This document shows positions 11,524 to 55,046 of a stretch of DNA of 64,000 bases, in pieces. The DNA lies in contig JACZKE010000016.1 of assembly GCA_014860225.1 (NCBI GenBank), forward strand, positions 1 through 64,000, given 5' to 3'. Below the pieces are notes generated by a model that did no database searches, was not told where the DNA came from, and saw only the letters and a program-made list of their open reading frames with translations. A program made the translations under genes and the position numbers. Numbering within the stretch: the stretch's first letter is position 1; every line of letters begins with the position of its first letter. This stretch comes from Desulfuromonadales bacterium. GTDB lineage: Bacteria; Desulfobacterota; Desulfuromonadia; Desulfuromonadales; BM103.

Positions 11524-11532
11524 GTCAACATC

Positions 11533-33993: not shown

Positions 33994-34751
33994 CGGTTCA
34001 AAGTTCAGAGATAAGTTTCGATACGCAACAAGGGGGTAGCATTCTGAAGCTCAAGTCGGGGCAGTTTTCCGGCTTTTGTGAAAATACACCGTCCGCGCGA
34101 GCTTTGGCCGCATCATTGCTGCCTGACCCTGACCACTCGTTCGCAGCCGGGGATCCGATTTGTTCTCCCTGGCACTCTGCTGCCACCGATAAAGCCCTGA
34201 TACGGCTGGATGGATATAGTTATTTTGTCAAGCGTTACAACTGTCAGGGCTTTGGTTATCGGCTTAGGAATCTACTGCGGCCCTCCCGGGCTCTGCGCTC
34301 TTGGCACAACGGTGTCAGCTTTCAGCGGGCTCAGGTTCCCACTGTGCCTCCCATCCTTTGCCTGGAAGAGCGTTTTTTAGGTCTTCTGGGTCGCTCCTAC
34401 GTGGTCTTTCCGCATCTGACAGATGCTGCATGCCTGCTCAATGTTTGGCAAATTCTGAGCCCCCAGGAGCAGAGGGAGGCGCTTTTGACCTTGGCCGAAA
34501 CATTTGGTTGCATGCACCGCAAGGGGATCTTTCACGGCGATCTGAACTGGCGCAATATCTTGGTGCGGAAGGATGAGAGGTTGCAATTTTTCCTGGTCGA
34601 CTTGGATGGCTGCCTCTATCGGCGAGGGTGCCATGAGAAACTTGCCAGCCGTGACCTGGAACATTTCTATCGTGATATGAGTCGCGCTGCGGTGACAGAC
34701 GAATTGACTCGGTATTTTCGCAAGAATTGGCAGGAGATTGTCATGGATTGA
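33990..34751 (+). CDS. LPS kinase-like protein (WaaP/Kdo kinase family)
   Basis: The 253-aa kinase shares blocks with its upstream neighbour and so probably arose by tandem duplication. It has YFVKRYNCQG (Lys81), IFHGDLNWRNILV (Asp184, Asn189) and FLVDLDGC (Asp204). It lacks the long N-terminal domain of the neighbour. ATG 33990 overlaps the neighbour's stop codon. It ends the core operon; the following 119 bases hold an AGTAT/ATACT hairpin at about 34809-34822 and no clear promoter. Confidence 0.85.
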   Translation: MTVQSSEISFDTQQGGSILKLKSGQFSGFCENTPSARALAASLLPDPDHSFAAGDPICSPWHSAATDKALIRLDGYSYFVKRYNCQGFGYRLRNLLRPSRALRSWHNGVSFQRAQVPTVPPILCLEERFLGLLGRSYVVFPHLTDAACLLNVWQILSPQEQREALLTLAETFGCMHRKGIFHGDLNWRNILVRKDERLQFFLVDLDGCLYRRGCHEKLASRDLEHFYRDMSRAAVTDELTRYFRKNWQEIVMD

Positions 34752-34870: not shown

Positions 34871-35806
34871 ATGAGCGAGCTGATAAGTACCTGTCCACAT
34901 CCCTTGGTTTCAATCGTCACGCCTGTTTACAATGCCGCCCAATATTTAGCGGCCATGTTGGAGAGTGCGCAGGCTCAAACTTGGGACTTCTATGAGCATT
35001 TGATCATCGACGATTGTTCTACAGATAATTCACGGGAAATTGTTAGACATTATCAACAAGAGGATTCCAAAATCAAGCTATTGTCTCAAGTTGCTAATGG
35101 CGGACCGGCGCTTGCACGCAACCGGGGTATTAATGAAGCGAATGGGGACTTCATTGCTTTTCTTGATGCTGATGACATTTGGATGCCAGAAAAACTGGAG
35201 CATCAAATGGCTGTTTTCAGGGACCATCCAAAGATTGGTCTAGTGGGAACAAACTGGTCAGTGATTGGTGCAAATGGCAAGTACCTGGATGAGAAAAGAG
35301 ATAAGAATAAGCGTTGTTGGGGAAAAGTTGGCGTAGCGGAGTTTCTGTTGGATAGAATCCCCCTGGTAACCTCTTCAGTCATGGTGCGAAAAAAGTGCCT
35401 GGAAAAGTGTGGGGTATTTAATGAAGATTATCCACCTTGTGAAGATTTCGACCTCTGGTTAAGAATCGTACAGCAATTTGAGGTTGGAATTCTTGAAGAC
35501 GTGTTGGTTAGTTACCGATCGCATTGTGATGGGATATCAAGAAACACAATGAAAAGCAGGATCAGTAAAATAAAAATTTTCGAAAATGAAGTCTTGCCAC
35601 GAATAGAAGTTCTCGGCCCTAGACGCGATGAATTCCTCTTAACCTTACAAAAAAAATATGTTTCACTTGGAAGAATGTTGATGACGAAAGGCCTCCAAAA
35701 AGATGCAGCACTCTATTTTGATAAGGCAATCAAATTAGAATGTCAAAGTCAAATTGTCAGAATGAAGGCACACTTATACAGTGTTATAAATAGGCGAAGA
35801 CTTTGA
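34871..35806 (+). CDS. GT2-family glycosyltransferase
   Basis: A 311-aa GT-A enzyme: VSIVTPVYNAAQYLAAMLES, DDCSTDNS, ANGGPALARNRGI and the metal motif FLDADDIW, with PPCEDFDLWLRI for acceptor-side catalysis. The C-terminal 60 residues are lysine-rich and helical. Base composition turns AT-rich from here to 37.0 kb, unlike the flanks. ATG 34871 is preferred over an upstream in-frame start at 34847. It overlaps the ligase gene by 4 bases. Confidence 0.88.
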   Translation: MSELISTCPHPLVSIVTPVYNAAQYLAAMLESAQAQTWDFYEHLIIDDCSTDNSREIVRHYQQEDSKIKLLSQVANGGPALARNRGINEANGDFIAFLDADDIWMPEKLEHQMAVFRDHPKIGLVGTNWSVIGANGKYLDEKRDKNKRCWGKVGVAEFLLDRIPLVTSSVMVRKKCLEKCGVFNEDYPPCEDFDLWLRIVQQFEVGILEDVLVSYRSHCDGISRNTMKSRISKIKIFENEVLPRIEVLGPRRDEFLLTLQKKYVSLGRMLMTKGLQKDAALYFDKAIKLECQSQIVRMKAHLYSVINRRRL

Positions 35807-37029
35807 AGCTTCTACCTTTATTCAAAATTGATTGCAAATATAATAGAAAACAATATTTTATAGAAAAATATCTATATATATTTTTTCTTGTTTTTATCGC
35901 ACTGTTATTTTCCGTCAAGAGAGGTATAGCAACAAAAGAATTCTATATTGTAAGCATACTTTTCATAATTTATTTTAGATATAATTTACACGCACTTAAA
36001 AAGCTATATTCAAATAAAGTTTATTTATTAAGTATGATTTTGATTTTATACTCAGTTATATCATCAATTGTTGTCGGCAGTATCGAGTTGGACTATATAA
36101 AAGCCGGTTTTAGGCTTATAGTTTTTCTGACAATCATGTTGTTTTTTTTGACGCAAAAATGTGAAATTTTCACCTTGTTCAAAATCATAGTGGTAGCAAC
36201 TATCGTTGGCAGTGGATATGATCTGTTTAACTATGTCGTTTCAGGTAGTTACCAACGTTCCTTACCATTTGGAATGGGTACAAAATTCCTGTGGCACATC
36301 TATGCCGGTGGGGTCTACTCGATTGTCGCCATTATTTCGACACATCTGGCGTTCATGAGTAGAAATCGGATTGAAAAAATACTGTATTCGCTGAGTTGTG
36401 TGTATTTGAGCGTTCTTGTATATCTATCGCAAAGTCGTGCAGCCATCCTCTGCTATCTCCTGTCAATCATGATTTATCTATTGTTAAGCAAGAGAGCAAA
36501 TATTAAATACGGCCTCATTACATTGTTAACGTTCTCTCTCATCGTTGGAGTTGTTAATAGCCATATCTACAAATTCGCGAGTTTGCTGGCAAGGAAGGAC
36601 GCGTGGCGTCTGGAAATATGGAGTCTTTCTCTTGACATTCTAAAAGATAAAATTTTGTTTGGTCATGGTCTTGGCGAAAATTTTCTTCTGAAGGCCAGTT
36701 TTGGGAGTTATACCGAGCCGCATAACTTATATCTATACGCAATATTTTCCGGCGGGATGGTTTGTTTTTTACTTTTGTTGATTTTGTACTGGGTGGCAAT
36801 CAGAGCTATTTTCCATAATTGGTGCCCAGATCTGGGGCCATTTATGGCGGCAATTCTGTTGTTCATCATTACATTCAACTTCTTTGATTCGAGAATGGTT
36901 GTCGATGATATTGGCGTCGGTTGGCATCTCTTCTGGTTTCCGATTGGATTGATCGCTGTTTTTGCGTCATTACAGGGTCCTGTAAAGGACGAAGCGTCGG
37001 TCGATACCCCGTGTAATTCGAAAGGTTAG
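35803..37029 (+). CDS. O-antigen ligase/polymerase family membrane protein (WaaL-like)
   Basis: A 408-aa protein with about 11-12 hydrophobic segments and the Wzy_C-type periplasmic motifs: LSQSRAAILCYLL and GHGLGENFLLKASFGSYTEP followed by HNLYLYAIFSGG. WaaL joins finished O-antigen to the lipid A-core in the periplasm; with a Wzm/Wzt exporter downstream, ligase is more likely than polymerase. The gene is markedly AT-rich and starts at TTG 35803. The 182-base gap after it holds only the gmhA ribosome site. Confidence 0.83.
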   Translation: MKLLPLFKIDCKYNRKQYFIEKYLYIFFLVFIALLFSVKRGIATKEFYIVSILFIIYFRYNLHALKKLYSNKVYLLSMILILYSVISSIVVGSIELDYIKAGFRLIVFLTIMLFFLTQKCEIFTLFKIIVVATIVGSGYDLFNYVVSGSYQRSLPFGMGTKFLWHIYAGGVYSIVAIISTHLAFMSRNRIEKILYSLSCVYLSVLVYLSQSRAAILCYLLSIMIYLLLSKRANIKYGLITLLTFSLIVGVVNSHIYKFASLLARKDAWRLEIWSLSLDILKDKILFGHGLGENFLLKASFGSYTEPHNLYLYAIFSGGMVCFLLLLILYWVAIRAIFHNWCPDLGPFMAAILLFIITFNFFDSRMVVDDIGVGWHLFWFPIGLIAVFASLQGPVKDEASVDTPCNSKG

Positions 37030-42266: not shown

Positions 42267-43376
42267 ATGCGGAAGATCCTTGTTACCGGCGGCTGCGGCT
42301 TTATCGGCTCGAACTTTGTGCGGCTCGCTCTTCATCAGCTCCCAGAAGTGCGCATCATCAATCTCGACAAGCTAACCTATGCCGGCAACCCCGCTAACCT
42401 CCAGGATGTCGAAAATAATCCTCATTACAGGTTCGTTCATGGCGACATCTGTGACCCGGTACTGCTGGAAAAGTTGTTTGCCGAAGAGCAGATCGACACG
42501 GTCGTCCACTTCGCCGCCGAATCCCATGTCGACCGCAGCATTGATGGGCCAGCCGAATTCATTCAGACAAATATCCTCGGCACCTTCACCCTGCTCGAAA
42601 CTGCCCGTAAGGCATGGGAGCCGTTACAAAAAAGCCGTGATGATAAAACCGTTAGGGATTTTTCGTCACGCGTTACGGATTCATCACCACGGTTCCTGCA
42701 CGTAAGTACCGATGAGGTCTACGGCTCCCTCGGCGATACCGGCCTGTTCACAGAAACGACCCCCTACGACCCACGATCCCCTTATTCGGCAAGCAAGGCG
42801 TCCTCCGATCATCTGGTCAGCGCGTATCACCACACCTACAACCTGCCGACGCTGATGACCAACTGCTCCAACAATTACGGCCCCTACCACTTCCCGGAAA
42901 AGTTGATCCCGCTGATTATCAACAATGCCCTGAACGGCAAAGAGCTGCCGGTATATGGTGACGGTAAGAACGTGCGCGACTGGCTGTATGTGGTCGATCA
43001 CTGTGCGGCGATTTTGACGGTGCTGCAAAAGGGCCGGGTAGGGGAGACCTACAATGTCGGCGGCAACAGCGAGAAGCAGAATATCGAGGTGGTGCAGACG
43101 GTTTGCGACATCCTTGACGAGAAAACGGCGCCTCTCGCAAGTGGCCAGCCACGCCGCTCATTGATCAAGTTCGTGAAAGATCGCGCTGGTCATGACAGAA
43201 GGTACGCCATTGATGCTTCTAAACTAAAGCAGGAACTGGGCTGGGAGCCGAGTGTTAATTTTGATGATGGAATCCGTATAACGGTGGAGTGGTATCTTGA
43301 CAACCCGAAGTGGGTCGAATCGGTTCTGGACGGATCCTACCAGGAATATTATGAAAAAATGTATGGCGGCAGGTAA
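42267..43376 (+). CDS. rfbB: dTDP-glucose 4,6-dehydratase
   Basis: RfbB makes dTDP-4-keto-6-deoxyglucose from dTDP-glucose. The 369-aa SDR protein has [32 protein letters not shown] and the catalytic YSASK. Between KAWE (115-118) and RFLHVSTDE it carries a segment about 13 residues longer than in E. coli (roughly 121-142), encoded by DNA with inverted repeats at its ends (42635-42692). The reading frame is open, so it is probably functional. Start ATG 42267 follows AGAGAGG. Confidence 0.94.
42635..42692. repeat. Inverted-repeat insertion inside rfbB, in frame
   Basis: CCGTGATGA at 42635-42643 is mirrored by TCATCAC(CA)CGG at 42681-42692. The segment encodes [17 protein letters not shown]-like polar residues not expected at this place in RfbB. 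Confidence 0.5.
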
Positions 43377-43382
43377 GGTAAT

Positions 43383-43478
43383 CTCACGCAGAGAACACAG
43401 GGATCACAGGGAGAAAAAATATATAACCCTTTTGATTCTCTCTGCGTCCTCAAGTGAACGCAGCAAACAAGCGAGAGG
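43383..43478 (+). repeat. Gene-less octamer/nonamer repeat, copy upstream of rfbD
   Basis: The left arm is CGCAGAGAA, CACAGGGAT, CACAGGGAG (three 9-base units); TCTCTGCGT at 43439-43447 is the inverted match to ACGCAGAGA at 43386-43394. The right end, CTCAAGTGAACGCAGCAAAC onward, is nearly the same as at 44462-44490. Its last bases GAGAGG (43473-43478) are the ribosome site of rfbD. Confidence 0.7.
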
Positions 43479-43487
43479 TGTTTTTTA

Positions 43488-44399
43488 GTGGAAAAGGCAC
43501 AACCCAAAATTGCCTTGCTGGGCGCGTCAGGAATGCTGGCACGCAAAGTTCGTGAGAAGGCACTCGCTACGGGTTATATTGTAACCCTGTATGACCTTCC
43601 GGATTTCGACATGACCGATCGAGCAAAGGTGCTGCAGGAGCTGACCCGATTGCAGCCTGATGTGATCATCAACTGTGCGGCGTTCACCAATGTCGATGGT
43701 GCCGAGACGCAGCAGGATTTGGCGATGGTCGTCAATGGCACTGCGGTTGGTTACCTGACTGAGGCTGCTTTAGCCGTTGATGCGATCCTGGTTCATGTTT
43801 CGACCGACTACGTCTTCGACGGACAAAAGAAGTCACCGTATGTTGAGGGTGATGCGCCGAACCCTAAGTCGGCCTATGGCCGCACGAAACTGGCTGGCGA
43901 ACAGGCCATTATACAGAGCGGTCTTGATAAGTACTTTATCGTCAGGACCAGTTGGTTGTATGGTCCAGGCGGCAATAATTTTGTTGAAACGATTCTGCGT
44001 TTGGCTGCGGAACGCGAAGAACTGCGCATCATCCACGATCAGGTCGGTAGTCCAACATTTACCGGAGATCTGGCTGACGCCATTTTTTCTCTGCTCGAAT
44101 CCGTTACAAGCCCCCAGCCCCCAGGACCCAGCCTCTATGGTACATACCACTTCGCCAACGAGGGCAGCTGCAGTTGGTACGAATTCGCCTGTGAGATTGT
44201 CACTCTGGCGAAGAAACAAGCTTTACCGATCAAGTCACAAAGGCTTTTGCCGATCCGGACAGAAGAATATCCTTTGCCGGCACCCAGGCCGGCGTATTCG
44301 GTTTTTTCTAAAGAAAAATATCTGGTGGCAACCGGTGCGGAAATCCCCGGCTGGAAAGACAGTCTGGTCAACTACTTGAAGAGCAGGAATAATCTCTAA
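43488..44399 (+). CDS. rfbD: dTDP-4-dehydrorhamnose reductase
   Basis: RfbD performs the last step to dTDP-L-rhamnose. The 303-aa SDR protein has [34 protein letters not shown] and [12 protein letters not shown] (Tyr-x3-Lys). Start is GTG 43488 with GAGAGG 9 bases upstream, contributed by the preceding repeat. Residues 205-215 ([11 protein letters not shown]) are encoded by a heptamer repeat (44106-44133) inserted in frame between LLE and LYGTYHFAN. Confidence 0.93.
44106..44133. repeat. AGCCCCC heptamer repeat inside rfbD, in frame
   Basis: Units AGCCCCC, AGCCCCC, AGGACCC and AGCC run in tandem and encode a proline-rich loop. Such CCCCCAG runs are usually intergenic in related genomes, to my knowledge. 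Confidence 0.55.
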
Positions 44400-44404
44400 A
44401 ACGT

Positions 44405-44492
44405 CGCACTCAGAGTACACAGCGGAAAAAATAAAAAACGGGTTATGGTTTTCTTTGTGTTCTCAAGTGAGCGCAGCGAACGGGCGAGAGAA
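44405..44492 (+). repeat. Gene-less octamer/nonamer repeat, copy upstream of rfbA
   Basis: The left arm CTCAGAGTA, CACAGCGGA and the right end (44462-44490, CTCAAGTGAGCGCAGCGAAC then GGGCGAGAG) align with the copy before rfbD in the same orientation. The two copies bracket rfbD about 1 kb apart. The end AAAGG (44491-44495) serves as the rfbA ribosome site. Confidence 0.7.
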
Positions 44493-44502
44493 AGGTGTGA
44501 TG

Positions 44503-45387
44503 ATGTCTGGTATTAAAAAAGGAATTGTCCTCGCGGGCGGGGCGGGTACGCGGCTTTACCCACTAACACTGGTGGCCAGCAAGCAGCTGCAGCCTGTCTA
44601 CGACAAACCGATGATCTACTATCCGCTCTCCACCCTCATGCGCGCTGGAGTGCAGGATATCCTGATTATTTCGACTCCCCAGGACACCCCGCGTTTTGAA
44701 GCGCTTCTCGGCGATGGCTCCCGTTTCGGGATTCGGCTGAGTTATGCAGTCCAGGAGGAACCAAAAGGGATCGCACAGGCCTTCCTGGTTGGCGAGGAAT
44801 TTATCGGCGATGATGCTGTTAGCCTGATTCTCGGTGACAATATTTTTTACGGTAAGATGGGGCTGACAAAGATTTTTTCCGAGTTTACCAGTGGCGCTAA
44901 AGTCTTCGGTTATCCGGTGCATGATCCCGAGCGTTATGGTGTGGTTGAGTTCGACAAGGGCGGCAGGGCCATCGATATTCAAGAAAAGCCAGTTAAACCC
45001 AAGTCGCATTACGCAGTGCCCGGGCTTTACCTGTATGACAACAAGGTCATCGAAATCACCAGGCAGATGAAACCCTCGGCACGTGGCGAACTGGAGATCA
45101 CCGATGTGAATGTCGAGTATCTCACGCGTGGAGAACTCAGAGTTGAAAAACTGGACCGCGGCATTGCCTGGCTCGATACCGGTACGCATCTTAGCCTGCT
45201 TGAAGCGAGCCACTTTATTGGTACACTTGAGGCCCGGCAGGGGTTGAAAATCGCCTGTCTGGAAGAGGTCGCATTTCGAAAAGGCTACTTGACCAGAGAT
45301 GACATGGAGAAAGTCGTTGCAGATACACCCAAGTCCAGTTATCGAGAGTATCTTGAGATGGTTTTGAATGATGGAGTCTCATTGTGA
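44503..45387 (+). CDS. rfbA: Glucose-1-phosphate thymidylyltransferase
   Basis: RfbA makes dTDP-glucose, the first step of the rhamnose pathway. The 294-aa product has [43 protein letters not shown] and [16 protein letters not shown]. Two ATGs stand in tandem (44500, 44503); the second has AAAGG at 7 bases. It overlaps rfbC by 4 bases. Confidence 0.96.
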
Positions 45388-45938
45388 AGGTGATCCATAC
45401 TGAGATTCCTGATGTGCTGATCATTGAACCGAAGGTTTTTGGTGATGATCGGGGGTTTTTTTACGAAAGCTACAACGAAAAGTCCTGGCGAGAAGCCACA
45501 GGAATTGCTCCTTACTTTGTTCAGGATAATCACTCAAGGTCGGCAAAAGGGGTGCTGCGAGGTTTGCATTACCAGCTGCCGCCCATGTCTCAGGGAAAGC
45601 TTGTCCGCTGCGTTGTCGGTGAGGTTTATGATGTGGCCGTAGACATTAGGAGAATTTCGCCAACCTTTGGGCAATGGGTTGGATCCTTCTTGTCGGCTGA
45701 GAATAAACGACAAATGTGGATTCCGGAAGGTTTTGCGCATGGTTTTTTGGTCTTAAGTGAGGCCACTGAATTCCTTTACAAAACAACAAATTATTATTCA
45801 CCGGAACATGAAAGATCTATTCGTTGGGATGACTCAGCACTGGGTATTAAGTGGCCTGGTGGTTTAACACCGGTGTTATCCCCCAAGGATGCGATTGCCC
45901 CTATCTTTTCTGAATCTGATTACTTTGAACAAATCTAG
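45384..45938 (+). CDS. rfbC: dTDP-4-dehydrorhamnose 3,5-epimerase
   Basis: RfbC epimerises dTDP-4-keto-6-deoxyglucose at C3 and C5. The 184-aa cupin-type protein has [20 protein letters not shown] with the catalytic histidine, [16 protein letters not shown] and [20 protein letters not shown]. Start GTG 45384 overlaps rfbA. With rfbB, rfbD and rfbA it completes dTDP-L-rhamnose synthesis. Confidence 0.96.
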
Positions 45939-45950
45939 AGACTGAGCGCA

Positions 45951-46754
45951 GTGATTAGGCATTTTCTGAATTTTCTACTGAATTTATTTCACAACCGTGC
46001 GCTTATCCTGCAATTGACGATCCGTGATTTCAGGACGCGCTATCTGGGTTCATACCTGGGGCTGTTGTGGGCTTTTATTCAGCCAATCATTACGATCATA
46101 ATTTTCTGGTTTGTTTTTGAACTTGGTTTCAAGTCTGCTCCGGTTGGAAATTTTCCATTTGTCCTCTGGTTGATCACCGGCATTATTCCCTGGTTCTTTA
46201 TTGCCGATACCCTGTCCAGTGCAACCGGATCCATTGTGGAGAACAGCTTCTTGGTGAAGAAGGTGGTTTTCAGAGTCAGCATGCTGCCAATTGTCAAGTT
46301 GTTGTCGGCACTGATGATTCATCTGTTTTTTGTGGGTGTCATTTTTCTGTTTTTTACTGTTTACGGTATTTATCCAACCATATATTCTTTTCAAGTCGTT
46401 TATTACCTCTTTGCCATGATTGTCATGCTGTTAGGACTTTCCTGGCTTACCTCTGCTCTGGTGATATTCCTTAAAGATATCGGACAGATCGTTGCCATGA
46501 TTCTTCAGTTTGGCTTCTGGGGAACGCCTATCTTTTGGTCACTGAATATCATTCCGGAAAAGTACCATTTATATCTAAAACTAAATCCGACCTATTATGT
46601 CATTCAAGGTTACCGCGACAGCTTCATCAATAACGTCTGGTTTTGGGAACACCCAATTTACGGACTTTACTACTGGTTTTGGGCCGGATTAATTTTTGTT
46701 TCCGGCGCTGTTGTATTTAATAGATTGCGTCCTCATTTTGCGGATGTTTTGTAG
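45951..46754 (+). CDS. wzm: O-antigen ABC exporter permease Wzm
   Basis: The 267-aa ABC-2 type permease has an N-terminal amphipathic stretch, the LTIRDFRTRYLGSYLGLLWAF motif region and six hydrophobic segments. Such permeases export lipid-linked O-polysaccharide or teichoic acid across the inner membrane. Start GTG 45951. The ATPase gene begins on the next base after its stop. Confidence 0.92.
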   Translation: MIRHFLNFLLNLFHNRALILQLTIRDFRTRYLGSYLGLLWAFIQPIITIIIFWFVFELGFKSAPVGNFPFVLWLITGIIPWFFIADTLSSATGSIVENSFLVKKVVFRVSMLPIVKLLSALMIHLFFVGVIFLFFTVYGIYPTIYSFQVVYYLFAMIVMLLGLSWLTSALVIFLKDIGQIVAMILQFGFWGTPIFWSLNIIPEKYHLYLKLNPTYYVIQGYRDSFINNVWFWEHPIYGLYYWFWAGLIFVSGAVVFNRLRPHFADVL

Positions 46755-47951
46755 ATGACTGATATCGCCATAAAAGTCACAAATATATCAAAGGTTTATC
46801 ATCTGTATGATGATCCCGTTGATCGCTTGAAAGAAGCGCTTCATCCGATGAGAAAAAAATACCACCGGGATTTTTATGCTTTAAGCGATCTGTCTTTTGA
46901 GGTGAATAAGGGTGAGATTGTTGGCGTTGTCGGAAAAAACGGCTCAGGAAAATCAACCCTCCTGAAAATTCTGACCGGAGTTTTGACACCCACCAAGGGG
47001 AGTTTTGTAACAAACGGCAGGGTGCTCGCTCTGCTTGAACTCGGTGCCGGGTTTAACCCAGATCTTACTGGAATTGAAAATATCTATTTTAATGCTACCT
47101 TGTTGGGGGCAACGAAGGAAGAAATCGACAGTAAACTGAACGCAATCCTTGAATTTGCAGATATTGGCGAATTTGTCCACCAGGCGGTCAAAACCTATTC
47201 AAGTGGAATGTATGTGCGGCTTGCTTTTGCCATTGTTGCTAATATGGATGCAGATTTGCTTATTGTTGATGAGGCACTCAGTGTCGGTGACGTGGCTTTC
47301 AGAAACAAATGTATGAAATCTATCAAACAGTTGCGTGATCATGGTGCAACAATTTTATTTGTGTCTCACGATTTGAGTACCCTCCAGATGATTTGTAATA
47401 GAGCAATATGGCTGGATAGGGGTGAAGTTAAGGGTGACGGAGACCCAGTTAATATCTGTCAGGACTATCATTCTTATATGACAGGCGAGATTTTAACCTC
47501 AAAAGGCAGCCTAGTTCCACAGCAAACCACCGGAATGGCCAAGTTCGAAAAGTTTTATTTTGATTGGAACGATGATAAGAAACCCATGTATAAAACCGGA
47601 CAGGATATCAGGTTCAGGTTTTCCTTAAAGGCATTGAAACCGATTGAAAAACAGATGCTGGGAATAAGTGTTTATCGTTCAGACGGAGACTGGTTAATCG
47701 GAGAAGCAAGTTCAAAAGTAGGGTTTTTCTTTTCCCCGATGTCTGAAGGTGAGTTGCAAGAAGGATTCTGTGAGCTCGTTGAAAATTGTTTGGCCCCTGG
47801 TGACTATCTGGCTGCCATCGCTGCCTGGTCGGAAGATCTTTCTATATGTTATGCTTGTACAGAAGTTTCGCTACCCTTCTCAGTGCGTACCGATTTCCCC
47901 TCTTGGGGAAAGTTTGCGCATCCTTGTCGGTGGGGATTGGGTAAGGCGTAA
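46755..47951 (+). CDS. wzt: O-antigen ABC exporter ATPase Wzt with C-terminal glycan-binding domain
   Basis: The 398-aa protein has an ATPase domain (Walker A GKNGSGKST about 67-75, signature YSSGMYVRLAFAI, Walker B DLLIVDEALSVGD) and a C-terminal extension from about 250 that fits the Wzt_C beta-sandwich. In E. coli O8/O9a this domain recognises the chemical cap on the non-reducing end of the finished polymer. Its presence predicts a capping enzyme encoded nearby; the 1057-aa protein that follows is the obvious candidate. Confidence 0.92.
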   Translation: MTDIAIKVTNISKVYHLYDDPVDRLKEALHPMRKKYHRDFYALSDLSFEVNKGEIVGVVGKNGSGKSTLLKILTGVLTPTKGSFVTNGRVLALLELGAGFNPDLTGIENIYFNATLLGATKEEIDSKLNAILEFADIGEFVHQAVKTYSSGMYVRLAFAIVANMDADLLIVDEALSVGDVAFRNKCMKSIKQLRDHGATILFVSHDLSTLQMICNRAIWLDRGEVKGDGDPVNICQDYHSYMTGEILTSKGSLVPQQTTGMAKFEKFYFDWNDDKKPMYKTGQDIRFRFSLKALKPIEKQMLGISVYRSDGDWLIGEASSKVGFFFSPMSEGELQEGFCELVENCLAPGDYLAAIAAWSEDLSICYACTEVSLPFSVRTDFPSWGKFAHPCRWGLGKA

Positions 47952-47976
47952 TTTAGTCGGTCCCCCATTTCGATTG

Positions 47977-48145
47977 CTGGGAGTTTGTCGGACTATCCAT
48001 GAGCCAGCTGCAAATCCGGCTGTTTGGCCCATATTCCAGCTCTTTTTTGGACCATAGCTACGCCTATGAGCCTGCAAACGAGCTAAAATCTGTTCTCAAA
48101 CATCCAGATTTTCGCTTCGTCCCGTATAGCCCGACAGGCTCCTGG
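47977..48145 (+). repeat. Dispersed hairpin-rich repeat, copy D (complete)
   Basis: The left end GGGAGTTTGTCGG (47980-47992) and the right end CCCGACAGGCTCC (48130-48142) are imperfect inverted copies. The interior matches the reverse complement of 1-137. Inside are CATAGC/GCCTATG and AGCTGCAAATCCGGCT-type stems. It fills most of the 230-base gap between wzt and the next gene. Confidence 0.85.
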
Positions 48146-48181
48146 AAAAGTAAGAGATAATTAAAACAAAGTTGACAATTT

Positions 48182-51100
48182 ATGGAGACCAATCCGTTGC
48201 TGAATTCCAAGCCTACGCGTGCGTCTAGAGCTATAACTGAAGCAAAGCCAACCTGTATAATATGTCAAGGTACAGAAATTACGACTCACTGTAATAGTGA
48301 TGGCCGCACAGTTTTTTCCTGCCATACTTGTTCCACTGATTTCGTTTGGCCAATGCCGGAACAGCAAGGCTTTAAAGACCGATATGAACACAAGGGATGG
48401 TTTGATGGAGGGGAGATAGGCTTTTGTGCTGATTGTGATGAGCAAAGCGAAAGCCTTCCACAATATCTGGAAGAATGCTTTGCAGTGATTGAGGCGGAAG
48501 ACAGGCCTAGGAAGGTTTTGGATATTGGTTGTGGATACGGAACGCATCTTGCTGTCGCTGTTGAAAAAGGCTGGGAATGTTTCGGGGTTGAAGGATCTGA
48601 GCATGCTCGTAAAATCGCCAAAAAAAGACACGGTGACAGTCTTTATCTGGTGGAGCGGGTCGATGATTTGCCACCCTGTCAATTTGATCTGATCTTATTA
48701 CTAGATATTATTGAACACTTAGCCGATCCATATGTTCTATTTTACAATCTCTTTACTAAGGGCGTCATCGGACCACGGACGCGAATTGTTATAACAACGC
48801 CTAATGCAAAATCCCTTGAAGCTGTTGCCGATCCAGTCAAGTGGGCGAATCGACATCATCCTTCCCATCTTGTTTATTATTCGCCCCAGTCGCTAAACAC
48901 TCTTTTAAACCAATTAAAATGGAGTGCGGTTGAGATCACTGGGCAATACCCGGTACCTGGTTTCTCAGCGAAATCAGACAATGAAGCCTCAGGGCTTAAC
49001 GAAAAGCTTTCAGGGTATAATGGGCTTCTTTGCACGGCTACAGGGAGTGATTTTTCAGAGTTTATGCACGAACGCTATGTGCCAGGGACTTGGAACAAAA
49101 TTGCAGAGTACGAACATCTACCACGTTATGTGATGGCACAAAAAATGGCTTCGGGCTTAAGAGTGCTGGATTTCGGTTGCGGAACCGGATACGGATCTGC
49201 CTTGCTTGCCAAAGATGCCGAGGCTGTAGTCGGTGTGGATATCTCTGAAGAAGCTCTGCGGTGGGCAATGCAGCATCAACACAACCCGTGTCTTCGTTTT
49301 GAGCGGCGAGATGATCTCGGAGCAGGGTTGCCTGCGTCCAGTTTCGACCTGGTTACATGCTTCGAGATGATTGAACATGTGTCTGCTGAGACACAGGAGC
49401 TGGTTATAAAGAACTTTCGGAAGATCTTAAGGGCCGAGGGTAAGCTGGTTATTTCAACGCCGAACCCTCAGGTGACCGAGAACTATGGCGAGAATCCCTA
49501 TCATCTGCATGAGATGAGTGAAAAAGAGTTCGTCACACTTCTAAAACATCATTTCAAGTATGTGCAGATATTCAGGCAGTGGATTCGCCCAAGCGTGCTG
49601 ATTGCGCAGCATCCGCTTCCCTCTGTTGGTGAAGGAGTGCAAGCTTACTCCATGGCTGTCGATGGGGCGTCATTTGATCTGCCGGCAGTTGCTTATGTTG
49701 CAGTTTGTTCTGATATACCCATTGGGGAGGTTGAAGGGGTCTGTAATTTTGATTCTTCGTTTGATTATGTCGAAAAGTCGATTTCTGACATAAATGTTTT
49801 AAATCATGAGCGCTTGGATAAATATTTTTATTTCTTAAGATCCCGAAATAATGAACGAGTATTAGAATTCTTTAAAGAAAAAGAAGAGAAGTTTTACGAG
49901 GCCTATTCAGAAAAAGAAGCTGCTATAAAAAGCATGCACGAAATGATAGTGGGAAAAGAAGCCACAATTCAGGCTATACAGGAATCCTTTAAAGAAAAAG
50001 AAGGGAAATTTTACGAGGCCTATTCAGAAAAAGAAGCTGCTATAAAAAGCATGCACGAAATGATAGTGGGACATGAATCTACTATAAAAAGCATACACGA
50101 AATGGTAGTGGAAAAAGAAACAATGCTTGAAACTTTCAGGATCTCAGGGCTTACGGAGCTTCTTGCAGTGTTTCAAAGCGAGAGACGAGGACTTAAGAAA
50201 GTTTTCATAAGTACTAAGTATTTCGTAAGGGCATTATTGAAAAATTATATACAAAAGAAAAATCAGGCAGCAAAATCCTCGTTCACAGTTTTGGAGCCTT
50301 ATCACGTCCACACTTTTTATCCTCCTCATGCAGGTCGCCCAAAAGTTATTCACGCTCTCGCAAATTTTATGACTGGTGGGTCTTCACGATTGGTTGTCGA
50401 TTTATTTGAACGTCTAGGGCATTGTTACGAGCAGGAAGTAGTCACCAGCTACAACCCTGACCCACCATCTTTTACTGGATTGCCAATTCACGAATTTCCC
50501 AACAGGACGAATCCGGATGATATCCTGAATTATTTTGAGAAGGTTCAGCCTGATTTGATTCATGTCCATTACTGGGGGGACTGCGACAAGCCTTGGTATG
50601 AGCAGGTATTTGACGCAACGAAAAAATATGGCTGCAAGGTTATCGAAAACATAAATACACCTGTGGAGCCATTTTTTGCCGACCACATTGATCGTTATAC
50701 CTATGTCAGTGATTATGTTTTTCATCAATTCGGAAAATCTGACAAAAAAAGTCTTACCATTTACCCCGGCAGTAATTTTGATATCTTTAAAAGGGATTCT
50801 ATAAATGAGGTGCCAAATGACTGTATTGGAATGGTATACCGCCTTGAGCCGGACAAACTCGAAGAACATGCGATAGATGTCTTTATCAAAGTTGTTCAGA
50901 GCAGGCCTGAAACCAAAGTGCTGATTGTTGGAGGCGGTACTTTTCTTGAGTCCTACAAAAAAACTGTGTGTAATGCTGGCGTCCTTGACTCTTTCAATTT
51001 CACCGGATACATCTCATACAAAGATTTGCCGGCACTCTACAACCAGATGAGTCTCTTTGTTGCACCGGTTTGGAAGGAGAGTTTCGGGCAAGTCAGTCCC

Positions 51101-51355
51101 TTTGCGATGAGTACCGGTATCCCAGTTGTGGGATATGATATCGGTGCTTTGTCAGAAATCATAGGAGACAAGAGTCTGCTGGCTCCTCCAGGCGACAGTT
51201 GTCGCCTGGCTGAGATCATTATCGACCTCTTGAATAATAGGGAGCGTCGCATTGAGATAGGCAGGCAAAACCGTGAACGTGCTCATGAAAAGTTTTCAGT
51301 GGAGGCAATGATCGAAGGCTATAAATCTCTATATGTCGAGTTGCTAGGTAGATAG
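48182..51355 (+). CDS. Modular methyltransferase-methyltransferase-coiled coil-glycosyltransferase
   Basis: The 1057-aa soluble protein has a zinc ribbon (CIIC 25-28, CHTC 47-50), methyltransferase 1 (VLDIGCGYG 112-120), methyltransferase 2 (VLDFGCGTGYG 328-338, FEMIEHV), a charged helical region (about 545-652) with two 39-residue repeats (564-602, 603-641), and a GT4-type domain (about 717-1057; LVVDLFERLG, PVWKESFGQVSPFAMSTG). Beside wzt it resembles in layout WbdD/WbbB-type terminators, where a coiled coil sets O-antigen length and the enzyme caps the chain. Homology to those proteins is not visible; the role is inference. A start site is weak, but ATG 48182 is the only sensible one. Confidence 0.85.
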   Translation: METNPLLNSKPTRASRAITEAKPTCIICQGTEITTHCNSDGRTVFSCHTCSTDFVWPMPEQQGFKDRYEHKGWFDGGEIGFCADCDEQSESLPQYLEECFAVIEAEDRPRKVLDIGCGYGTHLAVAVEKGWECFGVEGSEHARKIAKKRHGDSLYLVERVDDLPPCQFDLILLLDIIEHLADPYVLFYNLFTKGVIGPRTRIVITTPNAKSLEAVADPVKWANRHHPSHLVYYSPQSLNTLLNQLKWSAVEITGQYPVPGFSAKSDNEASGLNEKLSGYNGLLCTATGSDFSEFMHERYVPGTWNKIAEYEHLPRYVMAQKMASGLRVLDFGCGTGYGSALLAKDAEAVVGVDISEEALRWAMQHQHNPCLRFERRDDLGAGLPASSFDLVTCFEMIEHVSAETQELVIKNFRKILRAEGKLVISTPNPQVTENYGENPYHLHEMSEKEFVTLLKHHFKYVQIFRQWIRPSVLIAQHPLPSVGEGVQAYSMAVDGASFDLPAVAYVAVCSDIPIGEVEGVCNFDSSFDYVEKSISDINVLNHERLDKYFYFLRSRNNERVLEFFKEKEEKFYEAYSEKEAAIKSMHEMIVGKEATIQAIQESFKEKEGKFYEAYSEKEAAIKSMHEMIVGHESTIKSIHEMVVEKETMLETFRISGLTELLAVFQSERRGLKKVFISTKYFVRALLKNYIQKKNQAAKSSFTVLEPYHVHTFYPPHAGRPKVIHALANFMTGGSSRLVVDLFERLGHCYEQEVVTSYNPDPPSFTGLPIHEFPNRTNPDDILNYFEKVQPDLIHVHYWGDCDKPWYEQVFDATKKYGCKVIENINTPVEPFFADHIDRYTYVSDYVFHQFGKSDKKSLTIYPGSNFDIFKRDSINEVPNDCIGMVYRLEPDKLEEHAIDVFIKVVQSRPETKVLIVGGGTFLESYKKTVCNAGVLDSFNFTGYISYKDLPALYNQMSLFVAPVWKESFGQVSPFAMSTGIPVVGYDIGALSEIIGDKSLLAPPGDSCRLAEIIIDLLNNRERRIEIGRQNRERAHEKFSVEAMIEGYKSLYVELLGR
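49871..50104 (+). repeat. Two tandem 117-bp copies within the coiled coil
   Basis: Copies at 49871-49987 and 49988-50104 are almost identical for the first ~85 bases and diverge toward the end. The period is 39 codons, so the frame is kept. A further partial unit (IKSIHEMVVEKE) follows. Confidence 0.9.
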
Positions 51356-51357
51356 AA

Positions 51358-52701
51358 ATGAAAATAGCCCTGTTCGTCCACTGCTTTTTCCCGGACCACT
51401 TTTATGGAACGGAGACTTATACATACAGTATTGCGAAGAATCTACAAGCAATGGGCCACGACCCTGTTGTTGTCTCTGCAGTTTTCCCAGGTGAACCCAA
51501 AAAAGATACTGTTGTTTCAAAGTATGAATATGATGGCATCCCTGTGGTCTGTATTGACAAGAACTACCTTCCTAATACCCGTGTGAAGGATACTTATTAT
51601 CAGCCCGAGATGAGATCCTTGCTCAGGGACATGTTGACGGAAATCAAGCCGGATATTATCCATATCACCCATCTGATAAACCACACAGCTGTACTGCTTG
51701 AAGTGGCAGAGTCTCTCGGCATCAAGGCTGTCGCGACCTTGACGGATTTTTTCGGTTTTTGTTTCAACAACAAACTTGAAGCGGCTGATGGTACCCTCTG
51801 CAGTGGACCAAATCAGCAGCGCACAAATTGTCTCGCATGTTATCTGAAAGCCAACAGTAAACATCCTGGGGCGTCACTATTAGAACGTCTCGCTGAAAAA
51901 GCATCTTGGGCACGTCCGTTAGCTTTATTTCTCAATGTTTTGATTAAGCTCCCGGGGGCAAGGAAGGGCGCACTTGCCGGAACTGTACTCGACATAACTA
52001 TGCGGCCAGACATTCTTGAGACTCTATACAAGAACTATAAGGCTGTTATCGCTCCGACCCGATTCCTGAAAAGAGCGTATTTGCAGAATGGCTTGTCCGC
52101 CCCTGTCTACGATATTCGGTTTGGAGTGGATCTGAAGCGAAAACCAAAGGATCTTCGCACCAAAGGGGCCTCGTTGAAAATTGGTTATATCGGACAGATT
52201 GCAGCCCACAAAGGCACCGATATTCTCATCGATGCTTTTCGACAGCTGCCGCGGGGCTATGCGGAGCTGCACATTTTCGGCCCCGCAGACCAGGACCCCG
52301 GGTATATGGAGCAACTGACCTTGAGGGCTCGTGGCTACGACGTCTATTTCCGCGGCACTTTCCCCAAGGAGGAGATTGGCAACGTATTCTCGGAGCTGGA
52401 TTATTTTGTGATCCCGTCGACATGGTACGAGAACAGCCCCCTGGTCCTGCTGGATGCCTTGGCGAGCCATACCCCTGTCATTGTCTCGGATGTCGAAGGA
52501 CTGACGGAGTTTGTCGAAGAAGGGCAAAACGGATATGTGTTCAAACGGGGCAGTGTATCAGATTTGCTAAGGGTTTTGACGGGCATCGTTGCCGATCCGG
52601 TCAAAGCACGCGAGTTGTCAGATTCTACCGAATATGCTCGAACGACGAGGATGATGACTGAAGAAGCCTTGGCCGTTTATGCCAAGGTTCTTGTAGATTG
52701 A
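51358..52701 (+). CDS. GT4 glycosyltransferase (cysteine-motif subgroup, paralog 1)
   Basis: A 447-aa GT-B enzyme opening MKIALFVHCFFPDHFYGTET. The donor domain shows IGYIGQIAAHKGTDILIDAF and PSTWYENSPLVLLDALASHTPVIVSD. A segment CSGPNQQRTNCLACYL (about 142-157) between the domains has clustered cysteines and recurs as CKGPDSSRINCL in the next gene. Acceptor and donor unknown; O-antigen assembly is likely from context. Confidence 0.87.
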   Translation: MKIALFVHCFFPDHFYGTETYTYSIAKNLQAMGHDPVVVSAVFPGEPKKDTVVSKYEYDGIPVVCIDKNYLPNTRVKDTYYQPEMRSLLRDMLTEIKPDIIHITHLINHTAVLLEVAESLGIKAVATLTDFFGFCFNNKLEAADGTLCSGPNQQRTNCLACYLKANSKHPGASLLERLAEKASWARPLALFLNVLIKLPGARKGALAGTVLDITMRPDILETLYKNYKAVIAPTRFLKRAYLQNGLSAPVYDIRFGVDLKRKPKDLRTKGASLKIGYIGQIAAHKGTDILIDAFRQLPRGYAELHIFGPADQDPGYMEQLTLRARGYDVYFRGTFPKEEIGNVFSELDYFVIPSTWYENSPLVLLDALASHTPVIVSDVEGLTEFVEEGQNGYVFKRGSVSDLLRVLTGIVADPVKARELSDSTEYARTTRMMTEEALAVYAKVLVD

Positions 52702-52752: not shown

Positions 52753-54117
52753 TTGAAAATCCTTCTGACCACACATCAGTTCCTGCCGGACCACTGTTCC
52801 GGGACAGAAGTTCTCACTTTTGAAACCGCCAAGGTGCTGCAAAGGCTCGGTCATGAGGTGTTGGTCTTTACCGGTTACCCTGCCAGGAAGGACCTTGATG
52901 ACAATGAACGCTTTGACAGCTATTGGTATGAAGGGGTCTTCGTTACCAGATTCCACCATGGAAGGGTCCCCATGGGGGGACAGTCCAATATCGTTGAAGC
53001 TGAATACAATAACCAATTGTTTGCATCCTTTTTTCGGACTTACCTGAAAGAACAGATGCCTGACCTGGTTCACTTTTTTCACTTACATAGGTTGTCTGCG
53101 TCAGCGATTGAGGTTTGTCATGAATATGATATTCCCATGGTGATGACCCCCACTGATTTTTGGCTAGTCTGTCCGATGAGTCAGTTGCGGTTAACAGATA
53201 ATTCCCTATGCAAGGGCCCTGATTCATCTCGGATAAACTGTTTGCGCCATGTCGTTGCTTTGTCTCAGCCAGAGAAGACCTCCCGGCGATTGAGTAAATT
53301 ACCGGACTGTATGCTCAGGAGTATGATCTGGGGGATCAACAAGGGGATGTATGCAAGTCATTGGTTTGCACCGCTGGTAAAAGCATTATATGCAAGGCCA
53401 GCCTTTCTTGAGAAACAAATGAATCGTCTTGACAGGATGATCGTTCCGTCGCTGTTAATGCAGCGAATCCTTCTTGAACATGGGCTCAACGAGGACAAGG
53501 TCGTTTCATGCCCTTTTGGCATAAACTTTGTCCCGGCCGACAAAATGCCTCCTTCCCAGGTGGCTGTGCCATTGAGAATCGGCTTTGTCGGCACTCTCGC
53601 AGAGCATAAAGGGGCTCACGTGCTGGTCGAAGCGGTCCGCCAGATTCCACGAGAACGCGCCATTGAAGTCTTGTTATATGGTAATCTCGAAAGTTATCCA
53701 AGCTATGCGGAGAGACTGAAAGCTGCTGCCGGTGATGACCCCAGGGTCAAGTTTTGCGGCACCTTTCCCAATAGCGAGATCGGCAGAGTCTTCGCCAACC
53801 TTGACGTCCTTGTAGTGCCCTCCGTCTGGCATGAGAACACCCCCCTGATTATCTATACGGCACAAGCGGCCAGGTGCCCTGTGATTGCATCCGACCATGA
53901 GGGGATCTCAGAGATTGTGCATCACGGTAAAAATGGGCTTTTATTCCCTGCTGGCGATGCTCTCGTTTTAGCGCGCTTGATAGAGTCGTTATACCAGGAT
54001 CCATGTATATTGAAGAAGTTGGCTGCCAATTCGGAGCCGCCAAAGACGATTGATGCGTATGTCTGTGATCTCGAGCAGATTTACCAAGAGGTTCTCTCGG
54101 AAAGGTGTAATAAATGA
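52753..54117 (+). CDS. GT4 glycosyltransferase (cysteine-motif subgroup, paralog 2)
   Basis: A 454-aa paralog of the preceding gene, with MKILLTTHQFLPDHCSGTEV, the inter-domain CKGPDSSRINCLRHV, RIGFVGTLAEHKGAHVLVEA and PSVWHENTPLIIYTAQAARCPVIASD. The matched blocks in the same order suggest tandem duplication followed by divergence. Start TTG 52753. It overlaps the epimerase gene by 4 bases. Confidence 0.87.
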   Translation: MKILLTTHQFLPDHCSGTEVLTFETAKVLQRLGHEVLVFTGYPARKDLDDNERFDSYWYEGVFVTRFHHGRVPMGGQSNIVEAEYNNQLFASFFRTYLKEQMPDLVHFFHLHRLSASAIEVCHEYDIPMVMTPTDFWLVCPMSQLRLTDNSLCKGPDSSRINCLRHVVALSQPEKTSRRLSKLPDCMLRSMIWGINKGMYASHWFAPLVKALYARPAFLEKQMNRLDRMIVPSLLMQRILLEHGLNEDKVVSCPFGINFVPADKMPPSQVAVPLRIGFVGTLAEHKGAHVLVEAVRQIPRERAIEVLLYGNLESYPSYAERLKAAAGDDPRVKFCGTFPNSEIGRVFANLDVLVVPSVWHENTPLIIYTAQAARCPVIASDHEGISEIVHHGKNGLLFPAGDALVLARLIESLYQDPCILKKLAANSEPPKTIDAYVCDLEQIYQEVLSERCNK

Positions 54118-55046
54118 AATGTCTGATCCTTGGCGGAGGAGGGTTTTTGGGGTCGCATTTGTGCGAGGCACTCCTGGCTGAAGGCCATTCAGTCAAGATC
54201 TTTGATCGCCCCAATCTGAAAAGATTTCGAGAATTTTCAGCTGATGAGCAAGTGGAGTGGGTGGAAGGTGATTTTGCCAACCAGTCTGACGTCAACTTGG
54301 CAGTTCCTGATTGTGACGTAATCTATCATCTCGTTTCAACGACTTTGCCAAAATCATCGAATGACAACCCTGTCTACGATGTTGAAACCAATATCGTCGG
54401 TACATTACATCTGCTTGAGGTAGCGCGTAAATCAAGCGTACGAAAAATCATATTTATTTCTTCCGGGGGGACGGTCTACGGAATCCCCAACTGCACCCCG
54501 ATCAATGAAGAACACCCGACCAACCCAATCTGTTCGTATGGCATCAGTAAGTTAACAATTGAAAAATACCTGAATCTTTATTACACCCTGTATGGTCTTG
54601 ATTACTGCGTGTTGCGGTTGGCAAATCCTTATGGCGAGCGTCAAAGGGTAACTGCTACTCAAGGCGCCGTTGGTGTCTTCCTATATAAAGCGCTGAGAAA
54701 GGAACTGATCGAAGTCTGGGGTGATGGTTCGGTTATTCGAGACTATATTTACGTCGGTGATGCGATTAGCGCCATGGTCGCGGCGCTTTCATCTAATGGC
54801 AATCAAGGAATATTCAACATAGGCAGCGGTCATGGACAAAGTCTGAATAATATTTTGGAAGTAATTGAGAGTGTTTTGGGTCGACCTGTCTCTCGCATTT
54901 ATGTAGAAGGCCGTGCCCTCGATGTGCCTGTCAGTGTGCTTGACATCGAAAAAGCCAAGAACAGTTTGCAATGGAAGCCAAAAGTTGATTTCCGGGATGG
55001 ATTGGAACGCACTGCCCTCTGGATGAAAAGCGAAAGAAACAATTAA
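54114..55046 (+). CDS. NAD-dependent sugar epimerase/dehydratase
   Basis: A 310-aa SDR protein with GGGGFLGSHLCEALL, YHLVSTTLPKSS, ISSGGTVYG and the catalytic YGISK, plus a C-terminal RDYIYVGDAISAMVAAL. It resembles UDP-glucose/UDP-GlcNAc 4-epimerases and could supply a galacto-configured sugar for the O-antigen. Exact substrate unknown. It starts within the stop of the upstream gene (ATGA). Confidence 0.88.
   Translation: MKCLILGGGGFLGSHLCEALLAEGHSVKIFDRPNLKRFREFSADEQVEWVEGDFANQSDVNLAVPDCDVIYHLVSTTLPKSSNDNPVYDVETNIVGTLHLLEVARKSSVRKIIFISSGGTVYGIPNCTPINEEHPTNPICSYGISKLTIEKYLNLYYTLYGLDYCVLRLANPYGERQRVTATQGAVGVFLYKALRKELIEVWGDGSVIRDYIYVGDAISAMVAALSSNGNQGIFNIGSGHGQSLNNILEVIESVLGRPVSRIYVEGRALDVPVSVLDIEKAKNSLQWKPKVDFRDGLERTALWMKSERNN

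What the first reader, a model, noticed from the sequence alone, without database searches (positions are those of the whole stretch)
48182..51355. Candidate O-antigen chain terminator with built-in molecular ruler
Seen: zinc ribbon, two methyltransferase domains, a coiled-coil-like region and a GT4 domain in one 1057-aa protein, directly after wzm and a wzt with a C-terminal extension. Known: in E. coli O8/O9a, WbdD (methyltransferase/kinase plus coiled coil) caps the chain, the coil length sets chain length, and Wzt's C-terminal domain reads the cap; in Raoultella/Klebsiella WbbB a glycosyltransferase caps. Inference: this protein merges both strategies (methyl and sugar cap) in a domain order I do not know from the described systems.
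Basis: partly seen in the sequence, partly recalled or inferred. Interest (0 to 1): 0.87.

Follow-up and report, generated by a model that had tools for sequence, protein, structure and literature searches.

The report
Double-methyltransferase cap-and-measure protein for O-antigen
This large gene most likely makes a protein that ends growing surface-sugar chains by adding methyl groups, holds a chain-building enzyme at a set distance, and works with an export pump that recognises the methylated end; it is an unusual two-methyltransferase version of a known kind of system.

Summary
The ORF at 48182-51355 encodes 1057 aa: Cys pairs, two methyltransferase domains (MT1, MT2), a helical linker with a 39-aa tandem duplication, and a complete GT4. 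It follows wzm and a wzt with a Wzt_C domain, in an LPS locus.

24 relatives share MT1-MT2 and a linker; what follows varies: the same GT4, another GT4, a GT2, or nothing. 20 of the 24 loci hold a wzt, always with the window's Wzt_C subtype; 0 of 29 wzt genes in loci with MT2-like but no MT1 domains have it. Among 73 genomes of one family MT1-MT2 occurs in 13, all among the 14 with that subtype, three times on another contig. One locus (L016) has the same GT4 beside a wzt of another subtype, without MT1-MT2.

So the Wzt reader tracks the methyltransferases, not the GT4. Best reading: a methyl-cap terminator beyond a coil, with GT4 as a chain-building module, laid out like Klebsiella O7 and WsaE; not a methyl-plus-sugar cap. 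The window's own coil is only borderline by heptad scoring, and I found no activity or glycan data. A new variant of a known kind.

The parts
48182..51355 (+). Whole ORF, 1057 aa: Cys pairs - MT1 - MT2 - helical linker - GT4
48254..48331 (+). Cys pairs CxxC (25-28) and CxxC (47-50), possible zinc ribbon
   Evidence: sequence; no Pfam match; Cys not conserved in all relatives
48494..48952 (+). MT1, SAM-binding motif VLDIGCGYG at residue 112
   Evidence: shortened in L037, L041, L046
49052..49606 (+). MT2, SAM-binding motif VLDFGCGTGYG at residue 328; holds most of the invariant columns of the family alignment
49766..50140 (+). Helical linker, residues 529-653 (two long helices in the model; coil-like, borderline score)
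49865..50098 (+). Tandem in-frame duplication of 117 nt (39 aa)
50183..50236 (+). Basic amphipathic helix candidate, residues 668-685: hydrophobic moment 0.62 (99th percentile of the protein 0.55), net charge +6; possible membrane anchor
   Evidence: function inferred
50330..51352 (+). GT4 glycosyltransferase, complete GT-B fold, motif ESFGQVSPF at residue 966
45951..46754 (+). wzm, ABC transporter permease
46755..47951 (+). wzt, ABC ATPase with C-terminal cap-binding-type domain
47490..47948 (+). Wzt C-terminal domain, the subtype co-inherited with MT1-MT2; beta-sandwich like the cap-binding domains of characterised Wzt proteins
51358..52701 (+). GT4-type glycosyltransferase; its homologue follows the GT4 module in L016-L020
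52753..54117 (+). GT4-type glycosyltransferase of the same cassette
54114..55046 (+). NAD-dependent sugar epimerase/dehydratase of the same cassette
42267..45938 (+). rmlB, rmlD, rmlA, rmlC: dTDP-L-rhamnose synthesis
   Evidence: each over its TIGR cut-off
35803..37029 (+). Wzy_C / O-antigen ligase family protein
   Evidence: 54.5 bits, cut-off 31.7

Best explanation
The protein is the chain terminator and assembly scaffold of an ABC-transporter-exported O-antigen. SHOWN: domain anatomy, LPS/rhamnose gene setting, a neighbouring Wzt with a cap-binding-type C domain, close co-inheritance of MT1-MT2 with that Wzt_C subtype, and an exchangeable C-terminal module. INFERRED: MT2, with MT1 helping or adding a second methyl group, O-methylates the non-reducing terminal sugar of the growing chain. 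This stops extension and creates the mark that the Wzt C domain binds for export. The helical linker holds the methyltransferases away from the membrane-proximal polymerase, so only chains that reach past it are capped, which sets chain length. The GT4 at the membrane end adds backbone sugars together with the GT4 enzymes encoded next to it; it is not a cap.
For: 1) Wzt reader tracks the methyltransferases. With the window's own Wzt C domain as BLAST query, all 20 wzt genes found in 24 MT1-MT2 loci match (E 1e-28 to 1e-49), and 0 of 29 wzt genes found in 56 control loci (MT2-like, no MT1) match at E 1e-4, although ATPase-domain identities overlap (38-60% in controls, 52-61% in the family). A profile built from the family scores 217-247 bits there and at most 17.7 in controls. 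Fisher p 1e-12 for 20/20 against 0/23 controls of at least 380 aa. 2) Three of the four MT1-MT2 genomes without a wzt in the fetched stretch carry the subtype elsewhere. 3) 73 genomes of one family: subtype (E 1e-10) in 14, MT1-MT2 (E 1e-60) in 13, all 13 within the 14, 59 with neither (Fisher p 2e-13; not corrected for ancestry, and rows of both profiles come from this family). 4) The Wzt_C model matches best the Aquifex Wzt domain bound to 3-O-methyl-mannose (Z 14.8, rmsd 2.6, 127 aligned); that domain binds the methylated and not the plain sugar (PMC9445017, passages read). 6) Published rule: terminator beyond the coil, polymerase GTs at the other end (PMC11231755, Discussion part 1). 7) In 3 of 13 genomes the MT1-MT2 profile matches only from position 72, 211 or 216 of 510, that is, with MT1 reduced and MT2 kept.
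Against: I found no activity, glycan structure or chain-length datum for this family. The window's own coil score is borderline and the Fourier test is negative. Co-inheritance could partly be whole-operon inheritance: in 10 of the 13 genomes the two genes share a contig, and the three that do not are drafts. One genome (L034 = G444) has MT1-MT2 without the subtype, one (G855) the subtype without MT1-MT2. The fold match does not single out a methyl cap: the Kdo-binding O12 Wzt domain also scores Z 13.7 (rmsd 2.7, 134 aligned). The Trp that stacks on the methyl group in Aquifex Wzt is not conserved in this subtype (my reading). L016, without MT1-MT2, has a separate unrelated methyltransferase gene, so a methyl cap is not excluded there either. 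The substrate of either methyltransferase cannot be read from sequence.
Confidence: 0.72

Rival explanations
1. Sugar-plus-methyl cap: the GT4 adds one special terminal sugar, which MT1 and/or MT2 then methylate; Wzt_C reads the methylated special sugar.
For: GT4 and the methyltransferases are fused in the window and in 6 of 24 relatives, on both main branches of the MT1-MT2 tree.
Against: 18 of 24 relatives lack the fusion; 17 have this GT4 neither fused nor as a separate gene in the fetched stretch (L037 has it as a neighbouring gene; the stretches of L029 and L032 end soon after the gene), yet the Wzt_C subtype is kept wherever a wzt was found. The GT4 occurs without MT1-MT2 in the fetched stretches of L016 and of the GT2-linker-GT4 proteins L017-L020. 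Known terminators sit at the opposite end of the coil from such a GT (PMC11231755).
Confidence: 0.1
2. Ordinary decoration: MT1 and MT2 methylate internal sugars of the repeat unit, and the linker only tethers enzymes in a complex; chain length is set otherwise.
For: O-methylated repeat units exist (recalled). The coil of the window is weak by two tests.
Against: It does not explain why the Wzt C-terminal domain, of a known cap-reader fold, follows MT1-MT2 so closely.
Confidence: 0.13
3. Whole-operon inheritance without functional link: wzt and the methyltransferase gene simply travel together, so the association says nothing about cap reading.
For: In 20 of 24 loci the genes are close, nearly touching or overlapping in most.
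Against: The wzt ATPase domains are about as similar in many control loci, yet their C domains do not match. Three genomes keep both genes on different contigs; in L045 no wzt was seen in 9 kb upstream.
Confidence: 0.1

Closest known systems
Klebsiella O7 ORF6 (methyltransferase-kinase-CBM-coil-GT2-GT2)
   Same: N-terminal methyl-transferring terminator, coil, C-terminal GT modules, in a cluster with wzm, wzt and rml genes (PMC11231755: abstract, passages and Discussion part 1 read)
   Different: Here two methyltransferases and no kinase match, and one GT4 instead of two GT2. No sequence comparison was made.
WsaE of Geobacillus stearothermophilus (methyltransferase plus two rhamnosyltransferases)
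   Same: Methyltransferase at the N-terminus, GTs in the same protein, gene next to wzm/wzt; the methyltransferase is held to make the 2-O-methyl cap (PMC2943079, passages read)
   Different: One methyltransferase and two GTs there; two methyltransferases, a helical linker and one GT here. The WsaE sequence was not compared.
WbdD of E. coli O9a / Klebsiella O3 and O5
   Same: Cap enzyme, coil, membrane-proximal end that recruits the polymerase (PMC11231755 passages; PMC3482155 seen in a search listing only)
   Different: O9a/O3 WbdD has a kinase and no GT; here no kinase match and a fused GT4.
WbbB of Klebsiella O12 (Kdo cap)
   Same: Terminator and polymerase modules in one protein (PMC11231755 passages)
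   Different: The cap there is a sugar added by the N-terminal GT; here the N-terminal enzymes are methyltransferases.
Aquifex aeolicus Wzt carbohydrate-binding domain (8dky)
   Same: Same beta-sandwich, Z 14.8, rmsd 2.6, 127 aligned; binds a 3-O-methyl cap (PMC9445017, passages read)
   Different: 13% identity over the structural alignment; the methyl-stacking Trp is not conserved here (my reading)

Membership tests
Coiled-coil chain terminators of capped, ABC-exported glycans | Terminating enzyme N-terminal to the coil | tested here: met
   MT1 and MT2 precede the linker in the window and in 24 of 24 relatives, MT1 shortened in three. Layout only; that they terminate chains was not tested.
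Coiled-coil chain terminators of capped, ABC-exported glycans | Extended coiled coil | tested here: inconclusive
   Window best score 1.31, under the 0.5 line; Fourier test p 0.55; two long model helices; 18 of 24 relatives positive at this site
Coiled-coil chain terminators of capped, ABC-exported glycans | Polymerase GT fused to, or recruited by, the membrane-proximal end | tested here: inconclusive
   A complete GT4 lies there behind a basic amphipathic stretch; that it polymerises is not tested
Coiled-coil chain terminators of capped, ABC-exported glycans | Companion Wzm/Wzt with cap-binding-type domain | tested here: met
Coiled-coil chain terminators of capped, ABC-exported glycans | Coil length sets glycan length; glycan carries the cap | not testable with these tools
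   needs LPS gels and NMR
WbdD (O9a type) | Kinase domain | tested here: not met
   No kinase family among the 19 Pfam matches at E 0.001
WbbB (O12) sugar-cap terminator | Terminating GT at the N-terminus | tested here: not met
   N-terminal half is two methyltransferases; the only GT match is C-terminal
WsaE | One methyltransferase plus two GT domains | tested here: not met
   two methyltransferases plus one GT; WsaE sequence not compared
Wzt_C (PF14524) | Pfam cut-off and fold | tested here: met
   32.7 bits against 30.4; Z 14.8 (rmsd 2.6, 127 aligned) to 8dky and Z 13.4 (rmsd 3.1, 140 aligned) to 2r5o

The most novel reading that the evidence does not exclude
A multi-mark export code: MT1 and MT2 (and, in 8 of 24 relatives, a third methyltransferase gene directly upstream) place two or three methyl groups on the chain end, and this Wzt_C subtype, without the methyl-stacking Trp of Aquifex, reads the multiply methylated end as one combined signal. 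Chain length would be tuned in evolution by in-frame duplication of coil units such as the 39-aa repeat here.
Probability: 0.28. Interest if true: 0.68.

Novelty: new variant of a known kind. Interest (0 to 1): 0.52.

Why it matters
It gives a matched pair, the MT1-MT2 terminator and one Wzt_C subtype, that is found together in distant bacteria while the module behind the linker is exchanged. That makes the question of how an exporter knows a chain is finished testable by swapping parts. It also predicts an O-methylated chain end in organisms whose O-antigen structure I did not find described.

Tried and rejected
Full-length search: P0001 as query found no relative in genome contigs; one GT4-part hit besides the own genome among 58 genomes, own included (E 1e-20); 10 partial hits besides the own among 395, own included (E 1e-25, two candidates scored per genome); 5 partial hits in plasmids. 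Rejected: that the architecture is unique. An MT2 alignment then found 303 relatives, of which the tool kept 80. That scan starts from two peptide patterns, so it favours proteins with those motifs.

Rejected: that MT2 alone predicts this Wzt_C subtype.

Coil tests: the Fourier heptad/hendecad test was negative for 24 of 25 proteins at p 0.05 (L037 p 0.02) and stays as evidence against. The COILS-type score used a table and Gaussian parameters recalled from memory, so its probabilities are rough; controls.

WbdD, WbbB and WsaE did not appear by name in the rows shown of the PDB sequence searches (60 of 152, 60 of 143). The fold search of the full model listed only the GT4 part, so the folds of MT1, MT2 and linker were not compared. 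Oligomeric state (trimer) could not be modelled with the monomer tool.

Literature: searches listed no paper that I recognised as describing a tandem-methyltransferase terminator; a Rhizobium etli search returned nothing. Only PMC11231755, PMC2943079 and PMC9445017 were opened, in parts.
Full report
WHAT IS THERE. The ORF at 48182-51355 is intact and reads 1057 aa. Pfam places methyltransferase domains around residues 105-205 and 320-446 and Glycos_transf_1 at 880-1032. SAM motifs are at residues 112 and 328. The model (24 sequences, mean pLDDT 77.6) has the alternating strands and helices of MT1 and MT2, helices 529-596 and 610-653, weak helices to 695, and a GT domain, which matches solved GT4-type enzymes over 717-1057 (Z 30.9, rmsd 2.9, 327 aligned, to 7mi0). 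The N-terminal Cys pairs look like a zinc ribbon but have no Pfam match and are partly lost in relatives. The linker holds a 117-nt tandem duplication at 49865-50098: 102 of 117 nt and 32 of 39 aa identical. By eye the 39 residues read as units of 11, 14 and 14.

SETTING. Upstream lie rmlB, rmlD, rmlA and rmlC, each over its curated cut-off, then wzm and wzt. wzt carries Wzt_C at 32.7 bits, cut-off 30.4. Further upstream are a heptosyltransferase-family protein, three Kdo/WaaP-family kinases, an O-antigen-ligase-family protein and HldE, so an LPS O-antigen is likely. Downstream are two GT4-type genes and an epimerase.

RELATIVES. The full protein has no full-length match among 58 near genomes (own included), 395 genomes of the phylum (own included), the plasmid set or genome contigs as searched. 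Its halves have separate kin. The GT4 half (43-66% identity) occurs as a separate 387-aa gene in L016 and behind a GT2 and a linker in L017-L020; a homologue of the 51358 gene follows in all five (in L018 after one other gene). An MT2 alignment searched in genome contigs gave 303 relatives, the best 80 kept. The first 24 (L026-L049, 46-55% identity) have MT1 and MT2 fused, MT1 shortened in three. All 24 have a linker after MT2. Behind it 6 have this GT4, 2 another GT4, 3 a GT2, and 13 end there. On the MT1-MT2 tree of 25 rows (quick method, 6 of 22 inner branches open) this takes at least 4 changes.

COIL. A COILS-type score with a table from memory is positive in 18 of 24 relatives, only in the linker; in 14 of these 18 at most 10 of 200 shuffles of the segment reach it. 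The window protein reaches only 1.31, under the 0.5 line. A Fourier test was negative for the window and for 23 of 24 relatives. Controls for the score: 32 of 34 MT2-like proteins of 500 aa or more without MT1, and 5 of 203 other ORFs, are positive. I therefore call the coil likely in the family and unproven in this copy. Behind it in the window is a basic amphipathic stretch, residues 668-685; WbdD has a membrane-associated amphipathic helix C-terminal to its coil (PMC11231755, passages).

In 20 of the 24 loci a wzt lies in the fetched stretch, and all 20 have a C-terminal domain related to the window's (E 1e-28 to 1e-49). Among 56 control loci (L050-L105, no MT1 match), 29 have a wzt and none matches; 23 of the 29 are at least 380 aa long, and the best profile score is 17.7 bits against 217-247 for the family, whose rows built the profile. 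ATPase-domain identity overlaps between the two sets. Fisher p for 20/20 against 0/23 is 1e-12. Three of the four loci without wzt belong to genomes that hold the same Wzt_C subtype on another contig (190-206 bits); the fourth, L034, has none. In the 73 genomes of one family that were searched, the subtype (E 1e-10) is in 14 and MT1-MT2 (E 1e-60) in 13, all 13 among the 14; p 2e-13, uncorrected for ancestry, and the profiles were built partly from this family. In 399 genomes of the order of L026's genome only that genome has the subtype, and in 297 of the window's phylum only the window's own. By contrast L016 has the GT4 cassette and a wzt whose C domain scores 13.7 bits, with no MT1-MT2 in its 20 kb, though with an unrelated methyltransferase gene.

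WHAT IT BINDS. The Wzt_C model (21 sequences, pLDDT 88.6) best matches the Aquifex Wzt domain bound to 3-O-methyl-mannose (Z 14.8, rmsd 2.6, 127 aligned), then the Kdo-binding O12 Wzt (Z 13.7, rmsd 2.7, 134 aligned) and 2r5o (Z 13.4, rmsd 3.1, 140 aligned). The fold alone thus does not tell a methyl cap from a Kdo cap. The Aquifex domain binds methylated but not plain mannose, with Trp362 on the methyl group (PMC9445017, passages read). My reading of the alignments is that this Trp is not conserved here, so the cap or its placement may differ.

MECHANISM. Published systems put the terminator beyond the coil and the polymerase GTs at the other end (PMC11231755, Discussion part 1 read). Klebsiella O7 ORF6 and WsaE (PMC2943079, passages read) join a methyltransferase with GTs. 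The window protein fits this rule: MT1/MT2 cap by methylation, the linker spaces, the GT4 builds. No kinase was found, so a methyl rather than methyl-phosphate cap is expected. MT2 looks central, because in 3 of 13 genomes the profile matches only from position 72, 211 or 216 of 510. Eight of 24 relatives carry a further methyltransferase gene directly upstream of the MT1-MT2 gene (L028, L030, L032, L033, L038, L043, L045, L048), which suggests more than one methyl mark. Activity, cap structure and length control are inferred.

JUDGEMENT. Its double-cap idea is not supported; its terminator and Wzt_C ideas are. I file it as a new variant of a known kind. The searches, in an open-licence library only, listed no paper that I recognised as describing a tandem-methyltransferase terminator.

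Noticed in passing
L016:7129-9171 and 11129-11992: A GT2 - coil-like (by eye) - NKWYS (PF10364, putative capsular polysaccharide synthesis) protein of 680 aa and a Sulfotransfer_1 gene in a wzm/wzt locus with the same GT4 cassette. By position this could be a differently capped system; a sulfate cap is a guess.
   Followed up: partly
window 51077-51103 (residues 966-974): The GT4 module and all 12 distinct relatives listed (17 rows) have ESFG followed by F (once L) at the place where GT4 enzymes usually have the second Glu of EX7E (recalled). Possibly tied to the donor sugar nucleotide.
   Followed up: partly
L050-L105: MT2-like proteins of 500 aa or more without MT1 nearly always score as coil (32 of 34). 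Of 8 scanned, all 8 have a GT2 and 6 also a GT1/GT4-type match. Some come from Pseudonocardiales with no wzt seen in the fetched stretch.
   Followed up: partly
L023:8403-10934 and L098:9051-10940: Other proteins with two methyltransferase-like parts (L098 by Pfam; L023 by eye) and a coil-like stretch, beside wzt genes whose C domain is not of the window's subtype. Tandem methyltransferases may have arisen more than once.
   Followed up: partly
L042:9098-11353 and L038:4386-7622: The linkers hold internal repeats visible by eye, so length change by repeat duplication may be common in this family.
   Followed up: no
window 47952-48181: A 230-nt gap, with stops in all three forward frames, separates wzt from the gene, where most relatives overlap, nearly touch or hold a third methyltransferase gene.
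   Followed up: partly
window 27596-28495, 32827-33993, 33942-34751: Three Kdo/WaaP-family kinase genes in one LPS region.
   Followed up: no
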